A DNA stretch of 10,949 nt from Acidimicrobiia bacterium (GTDB lineage: Bacteria; Actinomycetota; Acidimicrobiia; Acidimicrobiales; SZUA-35). Every line of letters begins with the position of its first letter. The stretch's first letter is position 1. Positions 1 through 10,949 of this stretch are shown in pieces. The stretch is taken from NCBI GenBank assembly GCA_029857855.1, contig JAOUGG010000037.1, positions 1 to 10,949 on the forward strand, given 5' to 3'. The translations under genes and the position numbers were made by a program. The notes beneath the pieces were generated by a model that did not search any database, had not been told where the DNA came from, and saw nothing but the letters and a program-made list of their open reading frames with translations.

Positions 1-254
1 TGGAACTCCCGCGAGAGGATGCCCAGGTGCGATTCGGGCGCCCCCGACAGTGTGATCACCCCGATGCAGCCCATGCTGAGCACCGGCGACAGGAAGGTGG
101 TCGTCCCGCCCTGGGCCAGCACGATGTGCTCACCGAGCGTGCCGGAGTTGATGAGTTCGATGACCGACTTCGGTTCCGGCAGGAAGATGATCGTGCCTTC
201 CGGAACCTTGTCGGTCTCGAAACTGTTGAAGCCTTCGGCTACATAAGTTGTCAT
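1..254 (-). CDS. PEP-utilising-family protein beginning with a phosphohistidine swivelling domain (partial, 3' end outside window)
   Basis: Only the first 84 residues are present. They resemble the mobile phosphohistidine domain of PEP synthase, PPDK and enzyme I: after a short beta-rich lead comes LAQGGTTTF (47-55), then TLSGAPESHLGILSRE (68-83), matching the family pattern T-x-GG-x-x-SH-x-AI-x-ARE, with His76 as the predicted phosphorylated residue. In PEP synthase this domain follows an ATP-grasp domain; here it is N-terminal, so the protein is either a stand-alone swivelling subunit (as in multi-subunit phenylphosphate synthase) or has another order. The ATG at 254 is preceded by GAAGGGGA seven bases upstream. 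It is the third gene of a minus-strand series after the DUF7064-like and HAD genes, 114 nt behind the HAD stop; that gap shows nothing beyond the ribosome site. A phosphotransfer role is inferred; the substrate is unknown. Confidence 0.75.
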   Translation of the reverse strand, partial: MTTYVAEGFNSFETDKVPEGTIIFLPEPKSVIELINSGTLGEHIVLAQGGTTTFLSPVLSMGCIGVITLSGAPESHLGILSREF

Positions 255-1370: not shown

Positions 1371-2399
1371 CTAGTCCAACGGTCGCGACGGGCGGGCCGT
1401 GGCCGGGTCGCTGTTGAGGGCGGTGAGCATCGGCACCTCGAAGAAGTCCATGATCTCGCCGTGGCCGGTTCCGGCCTCCGTGGTGGCTCCGCCGCCTCCC
1501 TCGATGGTCCACTCGGCCAGTGAATTGAAGGCCACCATGTTCGGCCAGCACTGCCACGGGAAGGTGGTCAGGGCCCGGCCGTGAAGGGTGAAGGTGCGGT
1601 CGGCCGAGTCGGTGATGTCGAGAGCGACGGACTCGGGGTAGCGTTCCTGCGGTCGCTCGGTCCTGCCGGTTCCCGCCTTGAGTCCGTACACCGCGCCCTT
1701 CTCGAGGATGTAGCCATGGGCCAGCCACAGCTCGGTGCCGTTGGTGGTGCCGTCGAAGCCGAAGATGGCGTGCACCGCCAGCTCTTCGGAGAAGTGGGCG
1801 TGGAGCCAGCTCATGTTCGGCTTGCCCCGCTCCGGTCGGGGCCCCCAGGAATGATCCATCGTGGAGACGCAATCGATGTCGTAGGATTTGCCCCGCACCG
1901 ACACCGTGCCGGTGACCTTGCCGGACTGATCGAAGTGACCGTTGTACGCCGTCCCCCAGGCGAACTTGCCGGCGTCGTCGGCGTTCGTGGCCGCAGCGCA
2001 CATGGGATCCATGTCGGGATCCTGGATGTCGAACGCCGGCATGAGCGCGTCCCAGGTGACGTCGATCGTCGTCCCCTCGCCGTCGTCGTAGTTGATGAGC
2101 CAGGTCTGGTTCGGCTTCGTGCAGCGCACATGAAGGCTGTTCAGGAGTTCGTAGTCGAGCAGGCTGTCGGGAATAGGCAGCGATGATCGAAGGTCACAGA
2201 AGTCCGCTTCCCAGGGAGTCACTGCTCGACCCGAGTTGATGCAGATCGTCGACCCGACGATTCCGAGGTTGGGTCGGAAGAGACCGTAGACGCCGACGTT
2301 GAGGTTGTGTTCCGCGTTGAAGAAGCCGAAGTAGTTGGTTTCGGCCCAGGTAGGATCGTCCTCGGCCGGATGGAATTCTGCGTCCACGTCGTGAATCAC
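1371..2399 (-). CDS. DUF7064-like protein of unknown function
   Basis: 342 residues, no signal peptide or membrane segment. The marker is TMDHSWGPRPE (180-190), followed by a run of beta-strand-like segments (SWLHAHF, AVHAIFGFDG, ELWLAHGYILE). This matches my recollection of the actinobacterial DUF7064/DUF7065 proteins, a predicted beta-rich fold without established chemistry. The open frame continues to 2735, but upstream of 2399 it would translate the 13-bp tandem repeat and low-complexity sequence. GTG at 2399 has GGGGGG six bases upstream and is followed at once by family-like sequence, so it is preferred. First gene of the minus-strand set, coupled to the HAD phosphatase and divergent from the BMC operon; a role connected to the BMC substrate is inference from position only. 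Confidence 0.65.
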   Translation of the reverse strand: MIHDVDAEFHPAEDDPTWAETNYFGFFNAEHNLNVGVYGLFRPNLGIVGSTICINSGRAVTPWEADFCDLRSSLPIPDSLLDYELLNSLHVRCTKPNQTWLINYDDGEGTTIDVTWDALMPAFDIQDPDMDPMCAAATNADDAGKFAWGTAYNGHFDQSGKVTGTVSVRGKSYDIDCVSTMDHSWGPRPERGKPNMSWLHAHFSEELAVHAIFGFDGTTNGTELWLAHGYILEKGAVYGLKAGTGRTERPQERYPESVALDITDSADRTFTLHGRALTTFPWQCWPNMVAFNSLAEWTIEGGGGATTEAGTGHGEIMDFFEVPMLTALNSDPATARPSRPLD

Positions 2400-2405
2400 G
2401 TGAGA

Positions 2406-2411
2406 CCCCCC
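2406..2411 (-). promoter_or_regulatory. Ribosome binding site deciding the GTG start of the DUF7064-like gene
   Basis: A run of six G on the minus strand, six bases before GTG at 2399. No comparable site precedes the more upstream in-frame starts, which supports the shorter protein. Confidence 0.5.
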
Positions 2412-2444
2412 TGGGTTGCGAACAGAGCGGAACCGGTGTTCGCC

Positions 2445-2509
2445 ATCGAATCGAGTAATCGAATCGAGTAATCGAATCGAGTAATCGAATCGACCGATCG
2501 AATCGATGG
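2445..2509. repeat. 13-bp tandem repeat, five units, in the divergent control region
   Basis: Five consecutive 13-bp units begin at 2445, 2458, 2471, 2484 and 2497. All share the 10-bp core ATCGAATCGA, itself two copies of ATCGA. The last three bases are GTA in units 1-3, CCG in unit 4 and TGG in unit 5. The array lies 46 bp before the GTG start of the DUF7064-like gene. It is either a slippage-prone array or a cluster of regulator sites; the sequence alone does not decide. Confidence 0.9.
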
Positions 2510-2564
2510 CGTCCGATGGTTCCGTAGTGGCAACGATAGGGAGGATCGGCCGGAGCGATCCAGC

Positions 2565-2607
2565 TCCCGGACGGACAACAAACTCCTGTCTTGTTGTCTT
2601 CACGGGA
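2565..2607. promoter_or_regulatory. 43-bp interrupted dyad, candidate operator of the BMC operon
   Basis: Perfect 8-bp arms GACAACAA (2574-2581) and TTGTTGTC (2591-2598) are centred on 2586. A second pair of 5-bp arms, TCCCG (2565-2569) and CGGGA (2603-2607), has exactly the same centre. It overlaps the expected -35 zone and the first bases of a GATAAT box. The AT-rich inner arms and absence of a T run argue against a terminator. Best read as a binding site for a dimeric or tetrameric regulator; no regulator gene is seen in the window. Confidence 0.6.
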
Positions 2608-2611
2608 TAAT
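2606..2611 (+). promoter_or_regulatory. Possible -10 element for the BMC operon
   Basis: GATAAT matches the TATAAT consensus at five of six positions and lies 56 bases before the BMC-P start. No good -35 hexamer is found 16-18 bp upstream (the space is occupied by the dyad), which would fit an activator-dependent promoter. Assignment is by eye only. Confidence 0.4.
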
Positions 2612-2667
2612 GACCCTGCTGACCCCACTGCCGTACGTTGAGGACGGAACGTGAACCGGGGGTCGCA

Positions 2668-2982
2668 ATGAAGCTGGCACGAGTTCGAGGCAATGTCGTC
2701 AGTTCGGTCAAGGCCGACGGCTTGTCAAGCCACAAACTCCTGCTGGTGGAGGACCTCCATCCCGCTCACCTCGGCGACGACACGGACGACGTCGGGTCCG
2801 GCGGCGACCCCTACATCGCCGTCGATCTTGCCGGCGCCGGCATCAGCGAGATCGTCGTGGTCACCACGGGGAGCGCGGCCCGGATCGACCGCGGCGGCAG
2901 CGGTGTTCCTACCGACGCCGCCGTCGTCGGCATCGTCGACTCCGTGAACCTCGACGGAGCGACGGCGTATTACAAGAGCTGA
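2668..2982 (+). CDS. BMC-P pentameric shell vertex protein (EutN/CcmL family)
   Basis: 104 residues, close to the usual 85-105 of the family. It begins MKLARVRGNVVSSVKADGL, with the family's G-x-V-V-S/T-x-K opening; KLLLVEDL, YIAVDLAGAGISE, TTGSAAR and DAAVVGIVDSV follow in the order expected for EutN/CcmL/PduN. These proteins form pentamers that cap the vertices of the icosahedral shell. ATG at 2668 is chosen over the in-frame ATG at 2638 because GGGGG lies five bases upstream and the family match begins exactly there. First gene of the operon and the only BMC-P in the window, so it would supply all vertices unless another copy exists elsewhere. The stretch 36-48 is rich in Asp and Gly and probably forms a loop. 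Confidence 0.93.
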   Translation: MKLARVRGNVVSSVKADGLSSHKLLLVEDLHPAHLGDDTDDVGSGGDPYIAVDLAGAGISEIVVVTTGSAARIDRGGSGVPTDAAVVGIVDSVNLDGATAYYKS

Positions 2983-3068
2983 ACGGACACGGGCTGATCA
3001 CCACAGGGGCCGGCGCCAATGGCGGCGAAGAAGCAGACCGCAACGACGAAATCATCGAAGAACCAAGC

Positions 3069-3075
3069 AAGGAGA
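3069..3075 (+). promoter_or_regulatory. Strong ribosome binding site for BMC-H
   Basis: AAGGAGA, a near-perfect anti-16S match nine bases before ATG 3085. It is one of the strongest such sites in the operon, fitting the need for a large excess of hexamer subunits, and it decides 3085 over the in-frame ATG at 3019. The A-rich leader between the two ATGs uses codons rare in this genome (AAA, AGA, TCA) and is most likely untranslated. Confidence 0.65.
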
Positions 3076-3084
3076 CGAGAGACC

Positions 3085-3381
<297 letters not shown>

Positions 3382-3459: not shown

Positions 3460-4872
3460 ATGACGAGCACGCAGTCGAACGGTACGGGGTACCTGGACGC
3501 CGAGCTCGACGCCATCGCCGAGGCCCGCGCCCTGGCTCGTGGCGCTCGATCGGCGTTCGAACGGTTCGAAGGTGTGAACCAGGAGACCGCCGACCACCTG
3601 GTGGCGGTGATGGCGAAGGCTGCAGCCGACGCCTCCGATGAGTTGGCCAAGCTGGCCGCCGAGGAGACGGACTACGGCGTCTACGAGGACAAGATCCTCA
3701 AGAACCTCTACAACGCCACGGTGGTGGCCAAGTCGATGGAATCCATGAAGACCATCGGTGTGCTCTGGGTCGACGAGGCTCGCAAGGTCACCGCCGTCGG
3801 TGCTCCCATGGGCGTGATCGCCGGAATCATCCCCGTCACCAACCCGACGTCGACCACGATCTTCAAGTGCCTTGCCGCCGTCAAGGCGGGTAATGCGATC
3901 GTCTGCGCCCCGCATCCCCGGGCGGTCCGCTGTTGCGTCCGCACCGTCGAGGTCATGGCGGCCGCCGCCGAACGAGCGGGCGCTCCCAACGGGCTTCTCA
4001 GCTGCCTGTCCAAGGTGACGCTCGATGCAACCGCCGAGCTGATGGCCCATCCCGCCATCGGGCTGGTCATGGCCACCGGCGGTCCGGGCATGGTTCGGGC
4101 CGCCTACTCGTCGGGCAAGCCGACCCTGGCCGTGGGCGCGGGCAACGTGCCCGTCTACATCCACCGGTCCGTGGCCGATGTCTCGGAGGCCGCCCTCATG
4201 GTGGTCACCTCGAAGGCGTTCGACAACGGAACCGCGTGTGTGGCCGAGCAGGCGGTCGTGCTCGACGAACCGATCGCCGACGCCGCCCGGGCCGCCTTCG
4301 CCGATCATGGGACGTTCTTTCTCGACCAGGCGGCGCAGGAGCGTCTGGGGCAGCTGCTGTTCACCCCGTCGGGGGCAAATCATCCCGACCATGTCGGCAA
4401 GAGCGCCGTGGAGCTGGCCCGTCGCATCGGCCTCACCGTGCCGGCCGAAATCAAGGTGCTGGGCGTTGAGCTGACCGACGTCGGCCGCCATGCCCCCCTG
4501 TCGGCGGAGATCCTCGGTCCGGTGCTGTCGTTCTACCGGACGGCCGATGTGGGGGCCGGGGTGGACAAGTGTCTGGAGGTCCTTCGCTTCGGCGGCGAGG
4601 GCCACACGGTCGGCCTGCACGCCGACGATCCGCAGGTGGTGGCCCAGGTCGCCGGTCTGCCTGCGTCCCGGATCGTGGTCAACACGCCGAGCCTGTTCGG
4701 CGGCATGGGCTACAGCGCGGGTACCGACGCCTCGTTCATGCTGGGCACCGGTACCTGGAGCGGATCGATCGTGTCCGACAACGTCACGCCGCTGCACCTG
4801 ATCAACATCAAGCGGGTGGCCCACGAGAACCGACCCTGGCGCGACCTCTACAAGCCGGGGATGGGAGTGTGA
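3460..4872 (+). CDS. CoA-acylating aldehyde dehydrogenase of the BMC core (PduP/EutE-type)
   Basis: 470 residues. Converts an aldehyde plus CoA and NAD+ to acyl-CoA and NADH in the compartment lumen. The Rossmann and catalytic regions match acylating members: GVIAGIIPVTNPTST (118-132), TGGPGMVRAAYSSGKP (206-221), VGAGNVPVYI (225-234), FDNGTACVAEQ (254-264) with catalytic Cys260, and GEGHTVGLH (379-387). The cysteine context is nearer to the AdhE/sulfoacetaldehyde-type branch than to PduP. Helix 11-37 aligns with the start of the PduP catalytic body, leaving only about ten residues before it and no C-terminal extension, so no classical encapsulation peptide is visible. ATG 3460 follows GAGGAAGGA by six bases. 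This is the core metabolosome enzyme; the aldehyde identity is not shown by sequence. Confidence 0.93.
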   Translation: MTSTQSNGTGYLDAELDAIAEARALARGARSAFERFEGVNQETADHLVAVMAKAAADASDELAKLAAEETDYGVYEDKILKNLYNATVVAKSMESMKTIGVLWVDEARKVTAVGAPMGVIAGIIPVTNPTSTTIFKCLAAVKAGNAIVCAPHPRAVRCCVRTVEVMAAAAERAGAPNGLLSCLSKVTLDATAELMAHPAIGLVMATGGPGMVRAAYSSGKPTLAVGAGNVPVYIHRSVADVSEAALMVVTSKAFDNGTACVAEQAVVLDEPIADAARAAFADHGTFFLDQAAQERLGQLLFTPSGANHPDHVGKSAVELARRIGLTVPAEIKVLGVELTDVGRHAPLSAEILGPVLSFYRTADVGAGVDKCLEVLRFGGEGHTVGLHADDPQVVAQVAGLPASRIVVNTPSLFGGMGYSAGTDASFMLGTGTWSGSIVSDNVTPLHLINIKRVAHENRPWRDLYKPGMGV

Positions 4873-4877
4873 TCGTC

Positions 4878-5771
4878 ATGGCCCCCGAGACCGCCGCCGT
4901 GCAAGGTGACGTGCAAGACGGGCACGGCGGCTCGACGGCGCGGATCGCCGGATTCCTCCATCGTGCCGGTGCCGGTCATCGCCGGGTCCCGGAATCCTGG
5001 AGCGGCGACCTGCAATTCGGTGTCGATCTGGGGACCGCCTCCATCGTTTTGTGCGCGGTGGATGCCGACAACGAGCCGGCGTGGTGGGACAGCCGTTCGG
5101 TGCAGGCGGTCCGCGACGGCGTCGTCGTCGACTTCGCCGGTGCCGTCGCCGCCACCAGGGAACTGGTCGACGAGGCGGAGGAGACGCTCGGTGTCAGGGT
5201 GAGCCACGCCGCCACGGCGGCTCCGCCCGGCGTCCCGGTTTCCGACCGCCGAGCCTGCCACTACGTCGTCGAGCAGGCCGGCGTCGAGTGCCGGGGCGTG
5301 AACGACGAGATCTCGGCCGCCCAGGAGATCCTCGGGGTCGTCGACGGTGCCATCGTCGACGTCGGCGGGGGGTCGACGGGCGTCGGCGTGTATCGGAACC
5401 GGGAGCTGGTGTCGTTGACCGATCTACCGGGTGGCGGCCACCACCTCGATCTGATCCTGGCCGGGGCGCTCGGTATCTCGATCGAGGAGGCCGAGGAGGC
5501 CAAACGCACCGACGGTGCCGCGCACCTCGGTGTTCTCAAGGCCGGGGTCGAGCGGATCGCCGAATCGATTCGGTCGCAGTGCTCCGGCGTCGATCCCGGG
5601 CCCGTACACCTTGCCGGTGGCGCGCTGCTCCTTGCCGGCGCCGACGAGATCGTGGCCGATCGCCTGGGCTGGCGAACGGTTTCCTATCCGAACGCCCACC
5701 TGATCACGCCGTTTGGCATCGCCCGCAGCTTCGCCGCGGGGACGGCCGACGGCGGAACCGGAGACCGCTGA
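4878..5771 (+). CDS. eutJ: EutJ-like actin/Hsp70-fold ATPase
   Basis: 297 residues; E. coli EutJ is about 280. A poorly conserved, Gly-rich first 45 residues precede the ATPase body: phosphate-1 loop FGVDLGTASIVLCAVD (about 47-62), VRDGVVVDFAGAV, SHAATAAPPG, phosphate-2 loop GAIVDVGGGSTGVGVY, GGGHHLDLILAG, the EEAEEAKR helix, adenosine loop VHLAGGALLLAGADEI, and a C-terminal ITPFGIARS matching the EutJ ending TPLAIASS. EutJ is described as a chaperonin-like component of ethanolamine and related BMC operons; its client is unclear. ATG 4878 is preferred to GTG 4869 because GGGAG at 4863-4867 is well spaced only for the former. It follows the aldehyde dehydrogenase by 5 nt and overlaps the BMC-T start by one base (TGATG). 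Confidence 0.9.
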   Translation: MAPETAAVQGDVQDGHGGSTARIAGFLHRAGAGHRRVPESWSGDLQFGVDLGTASIVLCAVDADNEPAWWDSRSVQAVRDGVVVDFAGAVAATRELVDEAEETLGVRVSHAATAAPPGVPVSDRRACHYVVEQAGVECRGVNDEISAAQEILGVVDGAIVDVGGGSTGVGVYRNRELVSLTDLPGGGHHLDLILAGALGISIEEAEEAKRTDGAAHLGVLKAGVERIAESIRSQCSGVDPGPVHLAGGALLLAGADEIVADRLGWRTVSYPNAHLITPFGIARSFAAGTADGGTGDR

Positions 5772-6385
5772 TGGACCTTCAATTGCGCACCTACGCGTTC
5801 ATCGACCGGATGCAGCCCCAGGCCGCGGCCCACGTGGCTGCAACCTGCCAGGGCGATGTACCGATCGCCGGAATGGCCGAGCTGTTCATCGAGGCCGCTC
5901 CGGGCAACGAGATCTTCCGCTGCGCCGACATCGCGCTGAAAGCGGCTGACGTCCGTCCGGCGCTGCAGATCGTGGAGCGGGAGTTCGGCCTGCTCGAGAT
6001 CCACGGCAAGGGGCAGGCCGAGGTGGTGGCCGCCGGAGCCGCGGTGTTGGAGCATCTCGGTATGGCCGAGATCGATCGGGTGAAACCCGCCGTGGCCGGA
6101 TCCCAGTTCATCACCAATGTCGATCCCTACCAGGCCCAGCTGATCAACAAGTGGCGCAAGGGCAACCTGCTGATCCCCGGCACGAGCCTCTACATTCTCG
6201 AGGTCGCACCGGCCGCCTACGTGACGCTTGCGGCCAACGAGGCCGAGAAGGCGGCCGCCATCACGCTTGTCGAGGTGCGGGCCGTCGGTCGGTTCGGGCG
6301 ACTGTTCATCAGCGGCACCGAGAGTGACGTGCAGGCGGCGGCGACCGCGGCGATCGACGCCCTCGAGCAGCTCGAGGGCCGTTAA
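5771..6385 (+). CDS. BMC-T tandem-domain trimeric shell protein
   Basis: 204 residues with two BMC-type halves. The first (about 1-95) opens LRTYAFIDRMQPQAAAHVA and includes GNEIFRCADIALKAADVRP and IHGKGQAEVVAAGAAV; the second (about 100-204) includes GSLYILEV-like TSLYILEVAPAAY, LAANEAEKAAAITLVEVRAVG and GRLFISGTESDVQAAATAAI. The opening resembles the BMC-T proteins of the Haliangium/CsoS1D stacking (double-layer, gated-pore) group; that subgroup call rests on memory of those sequences. Such trimers occupy hexagon positions and are thought to pass larger molecules such as cofactors. Start ATG 5771 overlaps the EutJ stop and its own stop overlaps the next start (TAATG), so the three genes are translationally coupled. 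Confidence 0.92.
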   Translation: MDLQLRTYAFIDRMQPQAAAHVAATCQGDVPIAGMAELFIEAAPGNEIFRCADIALKAADVRPALQIVEREFGLLEIHGKGQAEVVAAGAAVLEHLGMAEIDRVKPAVAGSQFITNVDPYQAQLINKWRKGNLLIPGTSLYILEVAPAAYVTLAANEAEKAAAITLVEVRAVGRFGRLFISGTESDVQAAATAAIDALEQLEGR

Positions 6386-7692
6386 TGAGCTTCATCACCG
6401 CCGACGACGTTCGAAATGCCGACGACTTCCTGCTCGTCGGGCCCGGGGCCCGGCTGACTCCGTTGGCCCGGGACCTGGCCAACGAACTCGGCGTGGAGAT
6501 CCGCCACGTCAACGGCCCAGCCGGCGGAGCGGGGAACCGGGCACGGGTGCCGGGCCGGGGTCAACCTGGGGCTGAAGCCCTGGCCTCGGTGCCCGCCGTC
6601 GCCCTCGATGACCCGTCGGCTCCGATCTCGTCATCGAACCTGGCGTTGCCGCCGTCGGGAGCGATGTACCGCCGGGGTACACCCCTGGCCGCCGGTATCG
6701 ACCGGGGACGCGACGTCCTGCGTTCCTCACCGCCGGCCGCAACCGCTGGATCGTCGGCCGATCGCGTCAAGGTCGGGGTGGTCGGAGCCGGGCACGTCGG
6801 GGCGATGACGGCGCTTCGCCTCGCCGAGTGCAATCTCTTCCGGCAGGTGGCAATGGTCGACGTCACCCCCGGTCTGGCGGCCGGGCTTGCCCTCGACATG
6901 TGGCACGGCTCGGGTCTGTGCCGCTTCGACACCCGGGTCGTCGGTGACGAGGATCCGACCGTGCTCAGCGACTGCCGCTACATCGTGGTCACGGCGGGCA
7001 GCCCCCGCAAGCCGGGTATGACCAGGACCGACCTTACCGATGTCAACGCGGCCGTGATGCGCAGCGTCGGTTCGTCGATCGCCCAGCACGCCCCCGATGC
7101 CGTCGTCGTCGTCGTCACCAACCCGCTGGAGGAGATGACCCACGTGATGCAGAACGCCACCGGGTTTCCATCGGAGCGGGTGATCGGCATGGCCGGCGTA
7201 CTCGACTCGGCCCGGTTTCGTGCCCTGGTGGGCCTGACCGGCGTGGCCGCCCCGTCGCGGGTTCACGCCTACGCCATGGGCAGCCACGGCCCCGAGATGG
7301 TCATCCCCCTCAGCCAGGCCACTGCCAACGGGCGGCCGGTGTCGGAGCTTATCGAGCCGACGACCCTGGCGGCCATCGTCGAACGAACCCGGGATTCCGG
7401 GGCCGAGGTGGTTGGTCTGCTCAAGACCGGGAGCGCCTACTTCGCCCCGGCCGAGTCGGCGGCGTCAATGGTTCGCGCCATGGCTCGTGACAGCAACGAT
7501 GTGCTGACGGCCTGCGTACGTTCCGGCGGCGCCTACGGTCTGGTCGACACCCGGGTCGGGCTGCCGGTACGGCTGCGGCCCGACGGTGTCGACGAGATCG
7601 TGACGCTGGATCTCGAACCTGGCGAGATCGAGGCCCTCCAGGCCGCGGCGGAACGGATCGCCGTTCGCGTGGCCGCCGCGGCGGAGGGTTGA
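6385..7692 (+). CDS. Fusion: EutQ/EutT-like N-terminal module plus malate-dehydrogenase-type NAD enzyme
   Basis: 435 residues in three parts. Residues 1-45 (ITADDVRNA, LTPLARDLANELGVEI) match the opening of EutQ (ITANDIRAA, ITPEAREVADLLGF) and a segment of EutT. Residues 46-125 are a Pro/Gly/Ala/Ser-rich linker. Residues 126-433 are an LDH/MDH enzyme: GAGHVG (134-139), Asp159 at the NAD-specificity position, TAGSPRKPGMTRTDL (203-217), TNPLEEM, LDSAR (273-277) and GSHGPEMV (299-306). His301 and Asp274 form the catalytic pair; Arg208, Arg214 and Arg277 occupy the dicarboxylate-binding positions of MDH, where LDH has Gln at the first. Malate/oxaloacetate interconversion is therefore predicted, likely to re-oxidise NADH made by the aldehyde dehydrogenase. 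LDH/MDH-type genes are known in planctomycete-type BMC loci; I do not know of this fusion. The start overlaps the BMC-T stop. Confidence 0.88.
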   Translation: MSFITADDVRNADDFLLVGPGARLTPLARDLANELGVEIRHVNGPAGGAGNRARVPGRGQPGAEALASVPAVALDDPSAPISSSNLALPPSGAMYRRGTPLAAGIDRGRDVLRSSPPAATAGSSADRVKVGVVGAGHVGAMTALRLAECNLFRQVAMVDVTPGLAAGLALDMWHGSGLCRFDTRVVGDEDPTVLSDCRYIVVTAGSPRKPGMTRTDLTDVNAAVMRSVGSSIAQHAPDAVVVVVTNPLEEMTHVMQNATGFPSERVIGMAGVLDSARFRALVGLTGVAAPSRVHAYAMGSHGPEMVIPLSQATANGRPVSELIEPTTLAAIVERTRDSGAEVVGLLKTGSAYFAPAESAASMVRAMARDSNDVLTACVRSGGAYGLVDTRVGLPVRLRPDGVDEIVTLDLEPGEIEALQAAAERIAVRVAAAAEG

Positions 7693-7700
7693 CCGGGCTG

Positions 7701-8744
7701 ATGAAGGCGGTGGCGGTCGCCTCCGATGGGAAGCCCGAGGTGATCGAGGTCGCCGAGCCCGGACCTCCCGGACCAGGTGAGGTCGTGGTGGCCGTGGAGC
7801 TGGCCGGAATCTGCGGCACCGACCTACACGTTCTCCGGGGCGACTTCGGTGCCGCGCCACCCGGAACGATTCTCGGCCACGAATTCGTGGGTTGTATCGT
7901 CGCTGTCGGTTCCGGGGTGACCCGCCTGTTGGCCGGGGACCGGGTGGTCAATTCCGACTACACCGCCTGCGGCCACTGCCGCTGGTGTCGCCGAGCGGGG
8001 CACTGGCACTGCGACGAGCGTCGCTTCTTCGGCACCGGCGAGCTGTTCGGACCGGCCCAGGCCGGGGCTCAGGCCGAGCGGGTCCTCGTACCGAACGCCG
8101 AAACCACGCTCAGCCTGCTCGACCCGCGTTGCCCGCCGGAGGCCGCCATCCTCCTGAGCGACAACCTGGCCACCGCCTGGTCGGCCGTCGAGCGGGCCCG
8201 GCTCGAACCGGGGGAGGTGGTAGCCGTGATCGGGGGTGGCCCGGTGGGACTGCTGTCGGCTCACTGTGCCCTGGCGGTCGGCGCCGGTTCGGTGGTCGTC
8301 GTCGAACCGAATCCAGCGCGGCGGTCCGTCGCCGCGTCCCAGGGAGCCGTGGCGACCGACCCCGACAATGCCCGCGCCACGGTGGACGGGCTCACCGGCG
8401 GTGACGGTGCCGACGTCGTCATCGAGGCCGTCGGGCTGATCGCCACGCTCGACAGCGCCGTCGATCTCGTCCGTCGGGGTGGGCGGGTGGCGTCGGTCGG
8501 GGTTCCGTCCGCCGGCACCTGGACCGTGCCGGTCGCCAAGGCGTTTTCCGACGAGCTGACGCTTTCGTTCGTGGTCGGAAACCCGATCTCGACCAACGAC
8601 CGACTCCAGCGGATGGTGATCGGCGGTGCCCTTGATCCGACCTTCGTCATCGACGGCCGGACGACCCTCGCGGAGGCCCCAACCGCCTATGAGGCGGCGA
8701 TGGCCCAACGACATCTCAAGGTGGTGCTCGAGGTGGGCCGGTGA
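7701..8744 (+). CDS. Zinc-dependent medium-chain alcohol dehydrogenase
   Basis: 347 residues, normal length for the MDR family. Catalytic zinc ligands Cys38 (GICGTDLH), His60-Glu61 (LGHEFVG) and probably Asp154; structural zinc cysteines Cys90, Cys93, Cys96 and Cys104. The Rossmann motif GGGPVG (178-183) ends in Glu202, indicating NAD(H). It interconverts an alcohol and an aldehyde or ketone and would either feed the acylating aldehyde dehydrogenase or recycle NADH. BMC alcohol dehydrogenases are more often iron-dependent (PduQ/EutG), so an MDR enzyme is a less common choice. ATG 7701 is chosen; the in-frame TTG at 7689 abuts GGAGGG (7683-7688) with no spacer. No encapsulation peptide is apparent at either end, so it may act outside the shell. 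Last gene of the operon. Confidence 0.9.
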   Translation: MKAVAVASDGKPEVIEVAEPGPPGPGEVVVAVELAGICGTDLHVLRGDFGAAPPGTILGHEFVGCIVAVGSGVTRLLAGDRVVNSDYTACGHCRWCRRAGHWHCDERRFFGTGELFGPAQAGAQAERVLVPNAETTLSLLDPRCPPEAAILLSDNLATAWSAVERARLEPGEVVAVIGGGPVGLLSAHCALAVGAGSVVVVEPNPARRSVAASQGAVATDPDNARATVDGLTGGDGADVVIEAVGLIATLDSAVDLVRRGGRVASVGVPSAGTWTVPVAKAFSDELTLSFVVGNPISTNDRLQRMVIGGALDPTFVIDGRTTLAEAPTAYEAAMAQRHLKVVLEVGR

Positions 8745-10285: not shown

Positions 10286-10313
10286 CGCGTTGGGTCGGGC
10301 AGTCTTCAACGCG
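10286..10313. repeat. Inverted repeat upstream of smc
   Basis: Seven-base perfect arms CGCGTTG (10286-10292) and CAACGCG (10307-10313) separated by 14 bases, 40 bases before the smc start. No T run follows, so a terminator is unlikely. It could be a regulator site or a leader hairpin. The remainder of the 10171-10352 intergenic stretch shows only a TAGGAT box at 10248-10253 without a matching -35. Confidence 0.4.
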
Positions 10314-10352
10314 TTACCTCAACCCCACGAAGGGTCTCCTGAAGGGATCTGT

Positions 10353-10949
10353 GTGTTTCTCAAAGAGCTGACCATCAAAGGGTTCAAGTCGTTCGCCGAG
10401 TCGGCGGACCTGCTGCTCGAACCGGGCATCACGGTGGTCATCGGGCCGAACGGCTCGGGCAAGTCGAACGTGGTCGACGCCATGGCCTGGGTGCTCGGAG
10501 CTCAGGCACCGTCCGCCGTCCGTTCCCAGAAGATGGAAGACGTGATCTTCGCCGGAACCTCGGCCAAGAAGGCACTCGGCCGGGCCGAGGTGTCGCTCGT
10601 CATCGACAACAGCGATGGCCTTTTGCCGATCGAGTTCAACGAGGTCATGATCACCCGGACACTGTTCCGCAGCGGGGAATCCGACTACGCCATCAACGGT
10701 GTCTCCTGTCGCCTGCTCGACATCCAGGAGCTCCTGTCCGACTCGGGCGTCGGGCGTCAACAGCACATCATCGTCTCCCAGGGACGCATCGACGACGTGC
10801 TCAACGCCCGCCCCGAGGATCGTCGGGGCATCATCGAGGAGGCCGCCGGCGTTCTCAAGTACCGCAAACGCCGGGAACGGGCCGAACGGCGACTGGCCGC
10901 CACGGGCGACAACCTGACCCGGCTACAGGATCTTCTTCGTGAGGTCCGG
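10353..10949 (+). CDS. smc: Chromosome segregation ATPase SMC (partial, 5' end)
   Basis: The first 199 residues of a protein usually near 1,150-1,200, running off the window in frame. It is the N-terminal half of the ABC-type head: [15 protein letters not shown], Walker [10 protein letters not shown] (31-39), the R-loop region [15 protein letters not shown] (54-68) with Arg58, Q-loop VSQGRID (141-147), then [21 protein letters not shown] leading into the coiled coil from about residue 165. SMC with ScpA and ScpB condenses and segregates chromosomes. GTG at 10353 is chosen: GAAGGGA ends five bases upstream, and the neighbouring GTG at 10351 is in a frame that stops after six codons. A housekeeping gene marking the right limit of the BMC locus; smc often follows rnc, but here the upstream neighbour is the divergent amidohydrolase. 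Confidence 0.96.

What the first reader, a model, noticed from the sequence alone, without database searches (positions are those of the whole stretch)
6385..7692. BMC-type N-terminal module fused to a malate-dehydrogenase-type enzyme
Residues 1-45 (ITADDVRNA ... LTPLARDLANELGVEI) match the openings of EutQ and part of EutT, proteins of ethanolamine microcompartments, and are joined by an 80-residue low-complexity linker to a complete LDH/MDH enzyme. The same small module in front of unrelated enzymes suggests a portable BMC-association or assembly domain. Fusion to an MDH is not something I know as described.
Basis: partly seen in the sequence, partly recalled or inferred. Interest (0 to 1): 0.82.

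Follow-up and report, generated by a model that had tools for sequence, protein, structure and literature searches.

The report
Shell-docking module fused to malate dehydrogenase
A small folded tag, shared by several proteins of bacterial protein-shelled organelles, sits on the front of a malate dehydrogenase and probably anchors that enzyme inside the organelle's shell, pointing to a common but unrecognised docking domain.

Summary
Window 6385-7692 encodes a 435-aa protein: a module (aa 1-44), a disordered Pro/Ala-rich linker with an invariant Arg-Arg motif, and a complete malate dehydrogenase (MDH), in a BMC operon. The fusion is kept in 32 of 33 distinct loci with a matching MDH, from Acidimicrobiia to Burkholderiales; in the other the module lies in the neighbouring frame. 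A profile of the MDH modules alone ranks EutQ, PduM and EutT top three of 34 proteins, 33 of them Eut/Pdu. The module also occurs on EutQ cupins, a EutT-like protein, PduL, class-V aminotransferases, an amidohydrolase, MmgE/PrpD and flavoprotein-like proteins and small adaptors. In 296 genomes of the phylum, 19 of 20 module genomes carry EutN, one of the 19 by a chance hit. Published EutQ work assigns this segment to shell binding (PMC12487888); PduM is said to lack homologues outside Pdu (PMC12108088). Best reading: a portable shell-docking domain anchoring MDH as lumen redox enzyme. Homology and link to BMC genomes are shown; shell binding by MDH and reaction direction are inferred. The locus resembles published MIC1.

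The parts
6385..6516 (+). Module, aa 1-44 of the fusion (ITADDVRNA...LTPLARDLANELGVEIRHV)
   Evidence: Profile match to EutQ N-term, PduM C-term, EutT N-term; AlphaFold2 of aa 1-42 alone pLDDT 92, of the full protein about 94 in this stretch
6517..6762 (+). Disordered Pro/Ala/Gly/Ser-rich linker, aa 45-126
   Evidence: pLDDT under 50 for aa 45-100 and 105-115; A+P+S+G 61% of the linker stretches measured in the family
6649..6687 (+). Conserved motif in the linker, aa 89-101 PPSGAMYRRGTPL; R96 and R97 invariant
   Evidence: 33 of 33 sequences of A9; a strict regex of the motif is in 23 of 36 MDH ORFs and in none of the other ORFs of the loci
6763..7677 (+). Malate dehydrogenase domain, aa 127-431
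   Evidence: PF00056, PF02866, PRK06223 over its cut-off; R208, R214, N246, D274, R277, H301 invariant in 33 of 33
2668..2982 (+). EutN/CcmL-type shell vertex protein (BMC-P)
   Evidence: PF03319 3.1e-23
3019..3381 (+). BMC-H shell protein, EutM-like, with N-terminal extension
   Evidence: PF00936 4.3e-30; EutM model 130.7 bits, cut-off 133; 62 of 83 aligned residues identical to E. coli EutM, K53 and D57 kept
3460..4872 (+). Acylating aldehyde dehydrogenase
   Evidence: PF00171; TIGR02518 481 bits, below cut-off 620, matched from aa 13 to 463 of 470
4878..5771 (+). EutJ, with about 35 residues before the matched stretch
   Evidence: PRK15080 273 bits, cut-off 182
5771..6385 (+). BMC-T shell protein, CcmP-like
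   Evidence: NF053796 253 bits, cut-off 340
7689..8744 (+). Zinc-type alcohol dehydrogenase (TTG start at 7689 or ATG at 7701)
   Evidence: PF08240, PF00107
369..1367 (-). HAD-type phosphatase, divergent; homologues in 30 of the 32 fusion loci compared
   Evidence: PF13419 4.9e-19

Best explanation
The first 44 residues are a small folded docking domain of metabolosomes, the same as helices H1/H2 of the EutQ N-terminus and the C-terminal end of PduM. It sits at either end of lumen proteins, joined by a flexible linker, and tethers them to the inner side of the shell near BMC-H/BMC-T tiles. In this BMC type the enzyme so tethered is an MDH, which is expected to be oligomeric and so to offer several docking domains at once. 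No other enzyme of the operon shows a clear separate targeting element, so the MDH may be both shell anchor and redox partner: it would turn NADH made in the lumen by the aldehyde dehydrogenase (and by the alcohol dehydrogenase if that runs oxidatively) back to NAD+ by reducing oxaloacetate, with malate leaving through the shell. Shown here: the architecture (predicted), homology of the module, its tie to BMC genomes, conservation of the fusion, intact catalytic residues. Inferred: shell binding by this protein, number of subunits, substrate, direction.
For: Fusion in frame in 32 of 33 distinct loci with a matching MDH, plus two diverged fusions in L194 and L195. Module HMM from MDH fusions ranks EutQ, PduM, EutT first of 34 proteins. 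The curated PduM model PDU_like matches the module of a flavoprotein-like BMC protein, its residues 216-255 to positions 113-152, E=5.2e-6, 26.9 bits against a cut-off of 27, and TIGR04493 does at 5e-4. 67 of 80 BMC-T loci carry the module by the iterated model; the 13 without are 9 cyanobacterial loci and 4 cut close to the BMC-T gene on one side or both, of which L098 keeps 10 kb on its other side without a module. Genome-level association with EutN, 19 of 20, Fisher p 1.6e-20 with relatedness not corrected for. The own genome (81% complete) has two module hits at E<=0.1, both before an MDH next to shell genes. AlphaFold2: folded module, disordered linker, folded MDH. Published: EutQ lacking 9-41 stays with cargo, EutQ lacking 62-99 stays with shell, EutQ 1-99 targets sfGFP (PMC12487888, sections read); EutQ without its first 100 residues appeared to lose EutM in pull-downs (PMC4827028, passages). 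K53 and D57 of EutM, needed in that work, are kept in the window BMC-H; Q64 is Asn.
Against: No complex was predicted and nothing measured. PduM follows the core, not the shell, when PduB 1-37 is missing (PMC9132943, passages), and PduM lacking its first 23 residues gives only dim puncta (PMC12108088, passages), so the module may bind the shell weakly or bind something else. PMC4827028 places EutQ on the cytosolic face of EutM, PMC11334477 thought EutQ outside the shell while leaving it open (passages), PMC12487888 places it inside. EutQ of Enterococcus and Listeria lacks the first three helices, so the module is not universal. PduM similarity in the first round (0.0046) is near the best decoy (0.047). 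In one genome (G452) three module genes have no shell gene found within about 9 kb (queries from the window only). 13 of 32 EutN genomes in the phylum sample had no module hit. The aldehyde dehydrogenase has a strongly amphipathic stretch at aa 22-36, the highest terminal moment of the seven proteins, and EutJ has about 35 extra N-terminal residues, so hidden targeting elements there are not excluded. The malate direction rests on family residues and on the lack of another obvious NAD+ recycler.
Confidence: 0.65

Rival explanations
1. The module binds the enzyme core or an encapsulation peptide instead of the shell, and so pulls MDH into the cargo condensate.
For: PduM, which ends in the module, localises with cargo when the PduB N-terminus is lacking (PMC9132943, passages); the aldehyde and alcohol dehydrogenases of the window show no clear separate extension, so something must gather them.
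Against: In EutQ the cargo-binding part was mapped to H3/H4 (62-99) and H1/H2 showed no NMR shifts with the EutC peptide (PMC12487888); PduM has a separate N-terminal core-targeting peptide, residues 1-23 (PMC12108088, passages).
Confidence: 0.18
2. The module is a general small interaction or oligomerisation domain that happens to be frequent in BMC proteins, with no docking role.
Against: Strong hits are tied to genomes with shell genes. In EutQ, deleting it separates shell and cargo.
Confidence: 0.09
3. The module is an E3-binding (peripheral subunit-binding) domain borrowed from 2-oxoacid dehydrogenase E2.
For: Pfam PF02817 is the only Pfam hit in the module, E=0.0095 in the whole protein, and is matched at E<=1 by 26 of 86 module sequences.
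Against: 20.1 bits for the window module, below the curated cut-off 23.7, only profile positions 2-19 of 36; the AlphaFold2 model is alpha/beta with strands before and after the second helix.
Confidence: 0.03
4. The MDH does not act on malate/oxaloacetate but on another 2-hydroxy or 2-oxo acid made in the organelle.
For: TIGR01763 is below its cut-off; the residue after His-Gly (aa 303), Asp in the solved MDH 1gv0, is Asp in only 9 of 33 fusions; public names include lactate dehydrogenase.
Against: Arg at the two positions of the PRxPGMxR loop is invariant in 33 of 33, as in 1gv0; the best PDB matches are malate dehydrogenases.
Confidence: 0.3

Closest known systems
EutQ N-terminus, helices H1/H2 (Salmonella, E. 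coli; PMC12487888, PMC4827028)
   Same: Sequence profile, terminal position, flexible linker after it, BMC locus
   Different: EutQ continues with cargo-binding H3/H4 and a cupin acetate kinase; the MDH fusion has neither, but has the Arg-Arg linker motif
PduM
   Same: Its C-terminal 40 residues or so fit the module profile; a curated PduM model matches a module protein
   Different: Module at the C-terminus, core-targeting peptide at the N-terminus (published), no known enzyme domain
EutT
   Same: N-terminal module before a cobalamin adenosyltransferase; a EutT-like protein in L197 also has it
   Different: Other enzyme; weakest profile score of the three
Encapsulation peptides (PduP, PduD, EutC)
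   Same: Terminal extension joined by a linker that brings enzymes into BMCs
   Different: Those are amphipathic helices of about 15-20 residues; this is a folded 44-residue domain by prediction
MIC1 metabolosome (Axen 2014, PMC4207490)
   Same: AldDH, lactate/malate DH, zinc DH, MreB-like protein, phosphatase; no PTAC or signature enzyme among the ORFs scanned
   Different: Its Dataset S1 and member list were not read, so identity of type is likely, not shown; the N-terminal module is not mentioned in section 28 or the passages seen
PVM metabolosome
   Same: A lactate/malate dehydrogenase gene proposed to regenerate NAD+ (PMC4207490, passage)
   Different: Its MDH N-terminus was not examined here

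Membership tests
EutQ-H1/H2 type module | Sequence profile match | tested here: met
   own genome search E=1.5e-14 with A7, which includes the window row
EutQ-H1/H2 type module | At a protein end, with linker, in BMC loci | tested here: met
EutQ-H1/H2 type module | Binds shell proteins | not testable with these tools
   Known for EutQ from papers only
Encapsulation peptide | Single amphipathic helix of 15-20 residues | tested here: not met
   Predicted alpha/beta fold, helices 6-11 and 26-35, strands 15-18 and 38-41; a prediction
Malate dehydrogenase (LDH/MDH family) | Family profile and catalytic residues | tested here: met
   TIGR01763 alone below its cut-off
Malate dehydrogenase (LDH/MDH family) | Activity on malate/oxaloacetate | not testable with these tools
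   -
E3-binding domain PF02817 | Curated score reached | tested here: not met
   20.1 against 23.7 bits for the window module
E3-binding domain PF02817 | Fold of two parallel helices | tested here: inconclusive
MIC1 BMC type | AldDH, lactate/malate DH, zinc DH, MreB-like protein, phosphatase in one locus | tested here: met
   list of features from PMC4207490 section 28
MIC1 BMC type | Additional hydrolase, second AlcDH; no PTAC or signature enzyme | tested here: inconclusive
   None of these among the ORFs scanned in the 10.9 kb contig, which is cut on both sides

The most novel reading that the evidence does not exclude
One portable docking domain, unnamed in Pfam, links shell and lumen in many metabolosome families: PduM (said to have no relatives), EutQ, EutT, PduL, small adaptors and MDH, aminotransferase, amidohydrolase and MmgE/PrpD cargo all use it. 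PduM and the small adaptors would be bipartite bridges, core peptide at one end and shell module at the other, and in the MDH type the enzyme itself is the bridge and exports reducing power as malate, a shuttle like that of mitochondria.
Probability: 0.44. Interest if true: 0.87.

Novelty: new variant of a known kind. Interest (0 to 1): 0.72.

Why it matters
How lumen enzymes are tied to the shell is an open question in BMC assembly. EutQ and PduM were studied separately, and PduM was described as having no homologues outside Pdu. A shared domain makes the question testable with one set of mutants, gives a new tag (unlike encapsulation peptides) for loading engineered shells, and offers a search profile that flags unlinked cargo. 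The MDH fusion also bears on how incomplete-core metabolosomes recycle NAD+, which Axen 2014 left unresolved.

Tried and rejected
Rejected: a circular permutation of the E3-binding domain (my idea), because the model is alpha/beta and the Pfam match is partial and under cut-off. Rejected: chance resemblance. Rejected: a lone oddity of this MAG (32 loci). A first genome-contig scan with the N-terminal alignment gave 108 pattern matches and no confirmed relative; the BMC-T alignment worked. PDB sequence search with the module gave only marginal hits, best a designed TIM barrel at 0.0083. In the fold searches no E3-binding domain row was among the 50 listed; that is absence from a list only. Weak module hits were read and set aside as background, named by eye: IF2 (G013), HD-domain protein (G003), PHP-domain-like protein (G616), a probable shadow frame (G648), all E between 4e-4 and 9e-4; four more weak hits at 6e-4 to 8e-3 in the BMC genomes, two of which were looked at. 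The 13 EutN genomes without a module hit were not examined. In the 296-genome set ten of the 20 positives are one family (f13), and five of those (G093, G496, G190, G506, G527) were not read one by one. Of the 18 order genomes matched, 13 weak ones were not followed, apart from fetching G279, which showed no match to the operon's proteins. L085 has module and MDH in two overlapping frames; whether that is a real split or an assembly error was not settled.

Full report
WHAT IS THERE. The ORF at 6385-7692 encodes 435 aa. Apart from weak matches below cut-off, Pfam finds only the lactate/malate dehydrogenase domains from aa 128 on. AlphaFold2 on 33 aligned fusions gives three parts: aa 1-44 folded (pLDDT about 94), aa 45-115 mostly below 50, MDH from about aa 124 mostly above 90. 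Residues 1-42 predicted alone with 84 sequences have pLDDT 92 and the order strand-helix-strand-strand-helix-strand.

THE LOCUS. On the + strand lie EutN, BMC-H, acylating aldehyde dehydrogenase, EutJ, CcmP-like BMC-T, the MDH fusion and a zinc alcohol dehydrogenase. The BMC-H is nearly EutM: 130.7 bits against a cut-off of 133, 62 of 83 aligned residues identical. Laid on family models, the aldehyde dehydrogenase has 12 residues before and 7 after the matched stretch and the alcohol dehydrogenase no clear extension, so the MDH module is the only clear targeting element on an enzyme of the operon. Against that, the aldehyde dehydrogenase has a strongly amphipathic stretch at aa 22-36 and EutJ about 35 extra N-terminal residues. 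The window is the whole contig, from a draft genome of 978 contigs, 81% complete.

RELATIVES. Three near relatives came from the protein database, all MDH fusions. A search of 248 genomes of the order with the N-terminal alignment gave 18 with any match at E<=0.01; the window and four in another family (G347, G415, G289, G320) proved to be the fusion with the same gene order. A scan of genome contigs with the BMC-T alignment kept the best 80 of 142 confirmed loci. Of 36 ORFs with an MDH match, 35 carry the module in frame and one (L085) has it in the neighbouring frame. Three of the 35 repeat loci already held, which leaves 32 distinct fusions and L085: Acidimicrobiia, other Actinomycetota (Rhodococcus jostii, Nocardia, Gordonia, Pseudonocardia and others), Burkholderiales, Steroidobacter, Eremiobacterota (titles). 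Among those 32, picked for the fusion, AldDH and BMC-T are matched in 32, the zinc ADH in 31, EutJ and the HAD phosphatase in 30 each. In 198 genomes of the phylum 98 had an MDH match at E<=1e-60. Besides the window's, one of them (G057:C23) was later read as a diverged module fusion. The others begin in the linker or MDH part of the model, except one that runs from model position 37 through stop codons; their N-termini were not read one by one.

CONSERVATION. In 33 aligned fusions T25, P26, L27, A28 and A32 of the module are invariant; so are R96 and R97 of the linker motif and R208, R214, N246, D274, R277 and H301 of the MDH. That these last are the catalytic and substrate-reading residues is recalled from LDH/MDH biochemistry; the same residues are seen in the aligned 1gv0 malate dehydrogenase.

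THE MODULE ELSEWHERE. An HMM of the MDH modules alone, run over 11,961 ORFs of the loci, found 27 further ORFs at E<=1e-3; iteration levelled off at 89 domains. The iterated model is trained on these ORFs, so its E-values favour them. By it 67 of 80 loci hold a module: 30 on MDH, and 53 further domains in all. The 13 without are 9 cyanobacterial loci and 4 loci cut close to the BMC-T gene on one side or both; one of these, L098, keeps 10 kb on its other side without a module. Carriers by Pfam or NCBIfam, one representative each unless named: EutQ cupin (L106, L093, L197), class-V aminotransferase (L108, L114), dihydropyrimidinase-like amidohydrolase (L108), flavoprotein-like proteins with the module at the C-terminus (L104, L116, L201, the last two also TIGR02536 below its cut-off), EutT-like (L197, EutT model below its cut-off), PduL/PTAC with the module at the C-terminus (L176), MmgE/PrpD (L162, L163), and a cut second MDH fusion of the own genome (L194). 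Many more are small proteins with no family.

TIE TO BMC GENOMES. In 296 genomes of the phylum 20 had a module hit at E<=1e-3 and 32 had EutN; 19 of the 20 are among the 32 (Fisher p 1.6e-20, relatedness ignored and the own genome included). Two of the 20 are background by eye: IF2 in G013, which has EutN too, and an HD-domain protein in G003. 13 of the 32 EutN genomes had no module hit. In 200 genomes of the phylum of G460, a genome chosen because it has the module, three hits at E<1e-8 (G460, G562, G700) are all EutN genomes; two weak hits are not; EutN is over its cut-off in four. In 32 genomes chosen for having such loci all 32 hit; two E. coli records asked for were not held. Off-locus strong hits were in a second BMC locus in two genomes, one of them R. 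jostii, and in G452 in three places with no shell gene found by the window's proteins.

MECHANISM. From papers: EutQ 9-41 (H1/H2) is needed to stay with the shell, 62-99 (H3/H4) binds cargo peptides, 1-99 targets sfGFP (PMC12487888, mechanism section and discussion read). EutQ without its first 100 residues appeared to lose EutM in pull-downs, and EutM K53, D57 and Q64 changes abolished binding (PMC4827028, passages); that paper puts EutQ on the cytosolic face. PMC11334477 thought EutQ to be outside but left it open (passages). PduM 1-23 targets the core, and loss of PduM partly separates core and shell (PMC12108088 and PMC9132943, passages). Put together, EutQ, PduM and the small module proteins with helix-like tails by eye (L196, L197) look like bridges, core at one end and shell at the other. 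The MDH fusion lacks the cargo-binding part; there the enzyme itself takes its place. With an acylating AldDH and no PTAC or iron ADH among the ORFs scanned, MDH is the plainest candidate to turn NADH back into NAD+. Axen 2014 could not resolve which dehydrogenase does this in MIC1 (PMC4207490, section 28 read). The malate shuttle is inference.

NOVELTY. That an MDH-family gene lies in such BMC loci is known (MIC1, PVM; PMC4207490). That the EutQ N-terminus links shell and cargo is known. Not found in print in the searches made (open-licence papers only, no supplements; most hits seen as listings only): the module on MDH, its link to PduM and EutT, or its standing as a portable domain. PMC12108088 says PduM has no known sequence homology outside Pdu MCPs (passage). 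In the Pfam scan of 86 module sequences no family covers the whole module; E3_binding and PDU_like touch 26 and 7 of them.

The fusion count was mended from 32 of 32 to 32 of 33 and the four cut loci described more exactly; the amphipathic stretch of AldDH and two papers against were added. Odds for the best explanation and novel case were lowered by 0.01 for that.

Noticed in passing
G000:C953 (L194, 5107 bases): A second BMC locus of the same genome: EutN, BMC-H, AldDH, BMC-T and a second, diverged module-MDH fusion cut by the contig end; a relative lies in G057 (L195).
   Followed up: partly
window 3-254 (-); L081:15145-17820 (-): An ORF that by eye resembles a PEP-utilising mobile-domain protein (L050:4212-4736) is cut by the window edge; a PPDK_N plus PEP-utilizer protein lies near 20 of 32 fusion loci. 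Possibly part of the pathway.
   Followed up: partly
L081:12924-15107: A PucR-type regulator with GAF domains lies near 25 of 32 MDH-fusion loci.
   Followed up: no
window 1371-2735 (-): DUF7064/DUF7065 (Rv3169-like) protein divergent from the BMC operon, kept in the four f106 loci by eye.
   Followed up: no
L108:8235-9620 and 10613-12409; L114:903-2396; L111; L107: Class-V aminotransferase and dihydropyrimidinase-like enzymes with N-terminal modules in BMC loci of Syntrophomonadaceae and a Spirochaetaceae MAG (L107 and L111 judged by length and module only); a BMC for a cyclic nitrogen compound may be hidden here.
   Followed up: partly
L162:7988-9673 (-), L163:8293-10047 (-): Two MmgE/PrpD proteins with N-terminal modules, not beside shell genes found, in a Dehalococcoidia genome that has a BMC.
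   Followed up: partly
L164:8847-9896 (-): A 350-aa Pro-rich protein with two modules (aa 9-46 and 251-292); could cross-link shell tiles.
   Followed up: no
L176:1495-2574 (-); L173, L178, L179: PduL (PTAC by Pfam for L176, the others by eye) with a peptide-like N-terminal helix and a C-terminal module, in a family with up to nine EutN genes per genome.
   Followed up: partly
P0004 (E. coli EutQ): EutQ residues 6-92 match the NCBIfam EutA model NF007991 positions 2-88 at 1.6e-9, though E. coli EutA itself does not show the module.
   Followed up: no
control E. coli genome: The PduM model TIGR04493 rings below its cut-off in the control E. coli genome; which gene it is was not told, and EutQ and EutT of K-12 do not match it at E<=1.
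   Followed up: no
window 10290-10949 (+): Start of an SMC-like protein by eye, cut by the window end; not run against any library.
   Followed up: no
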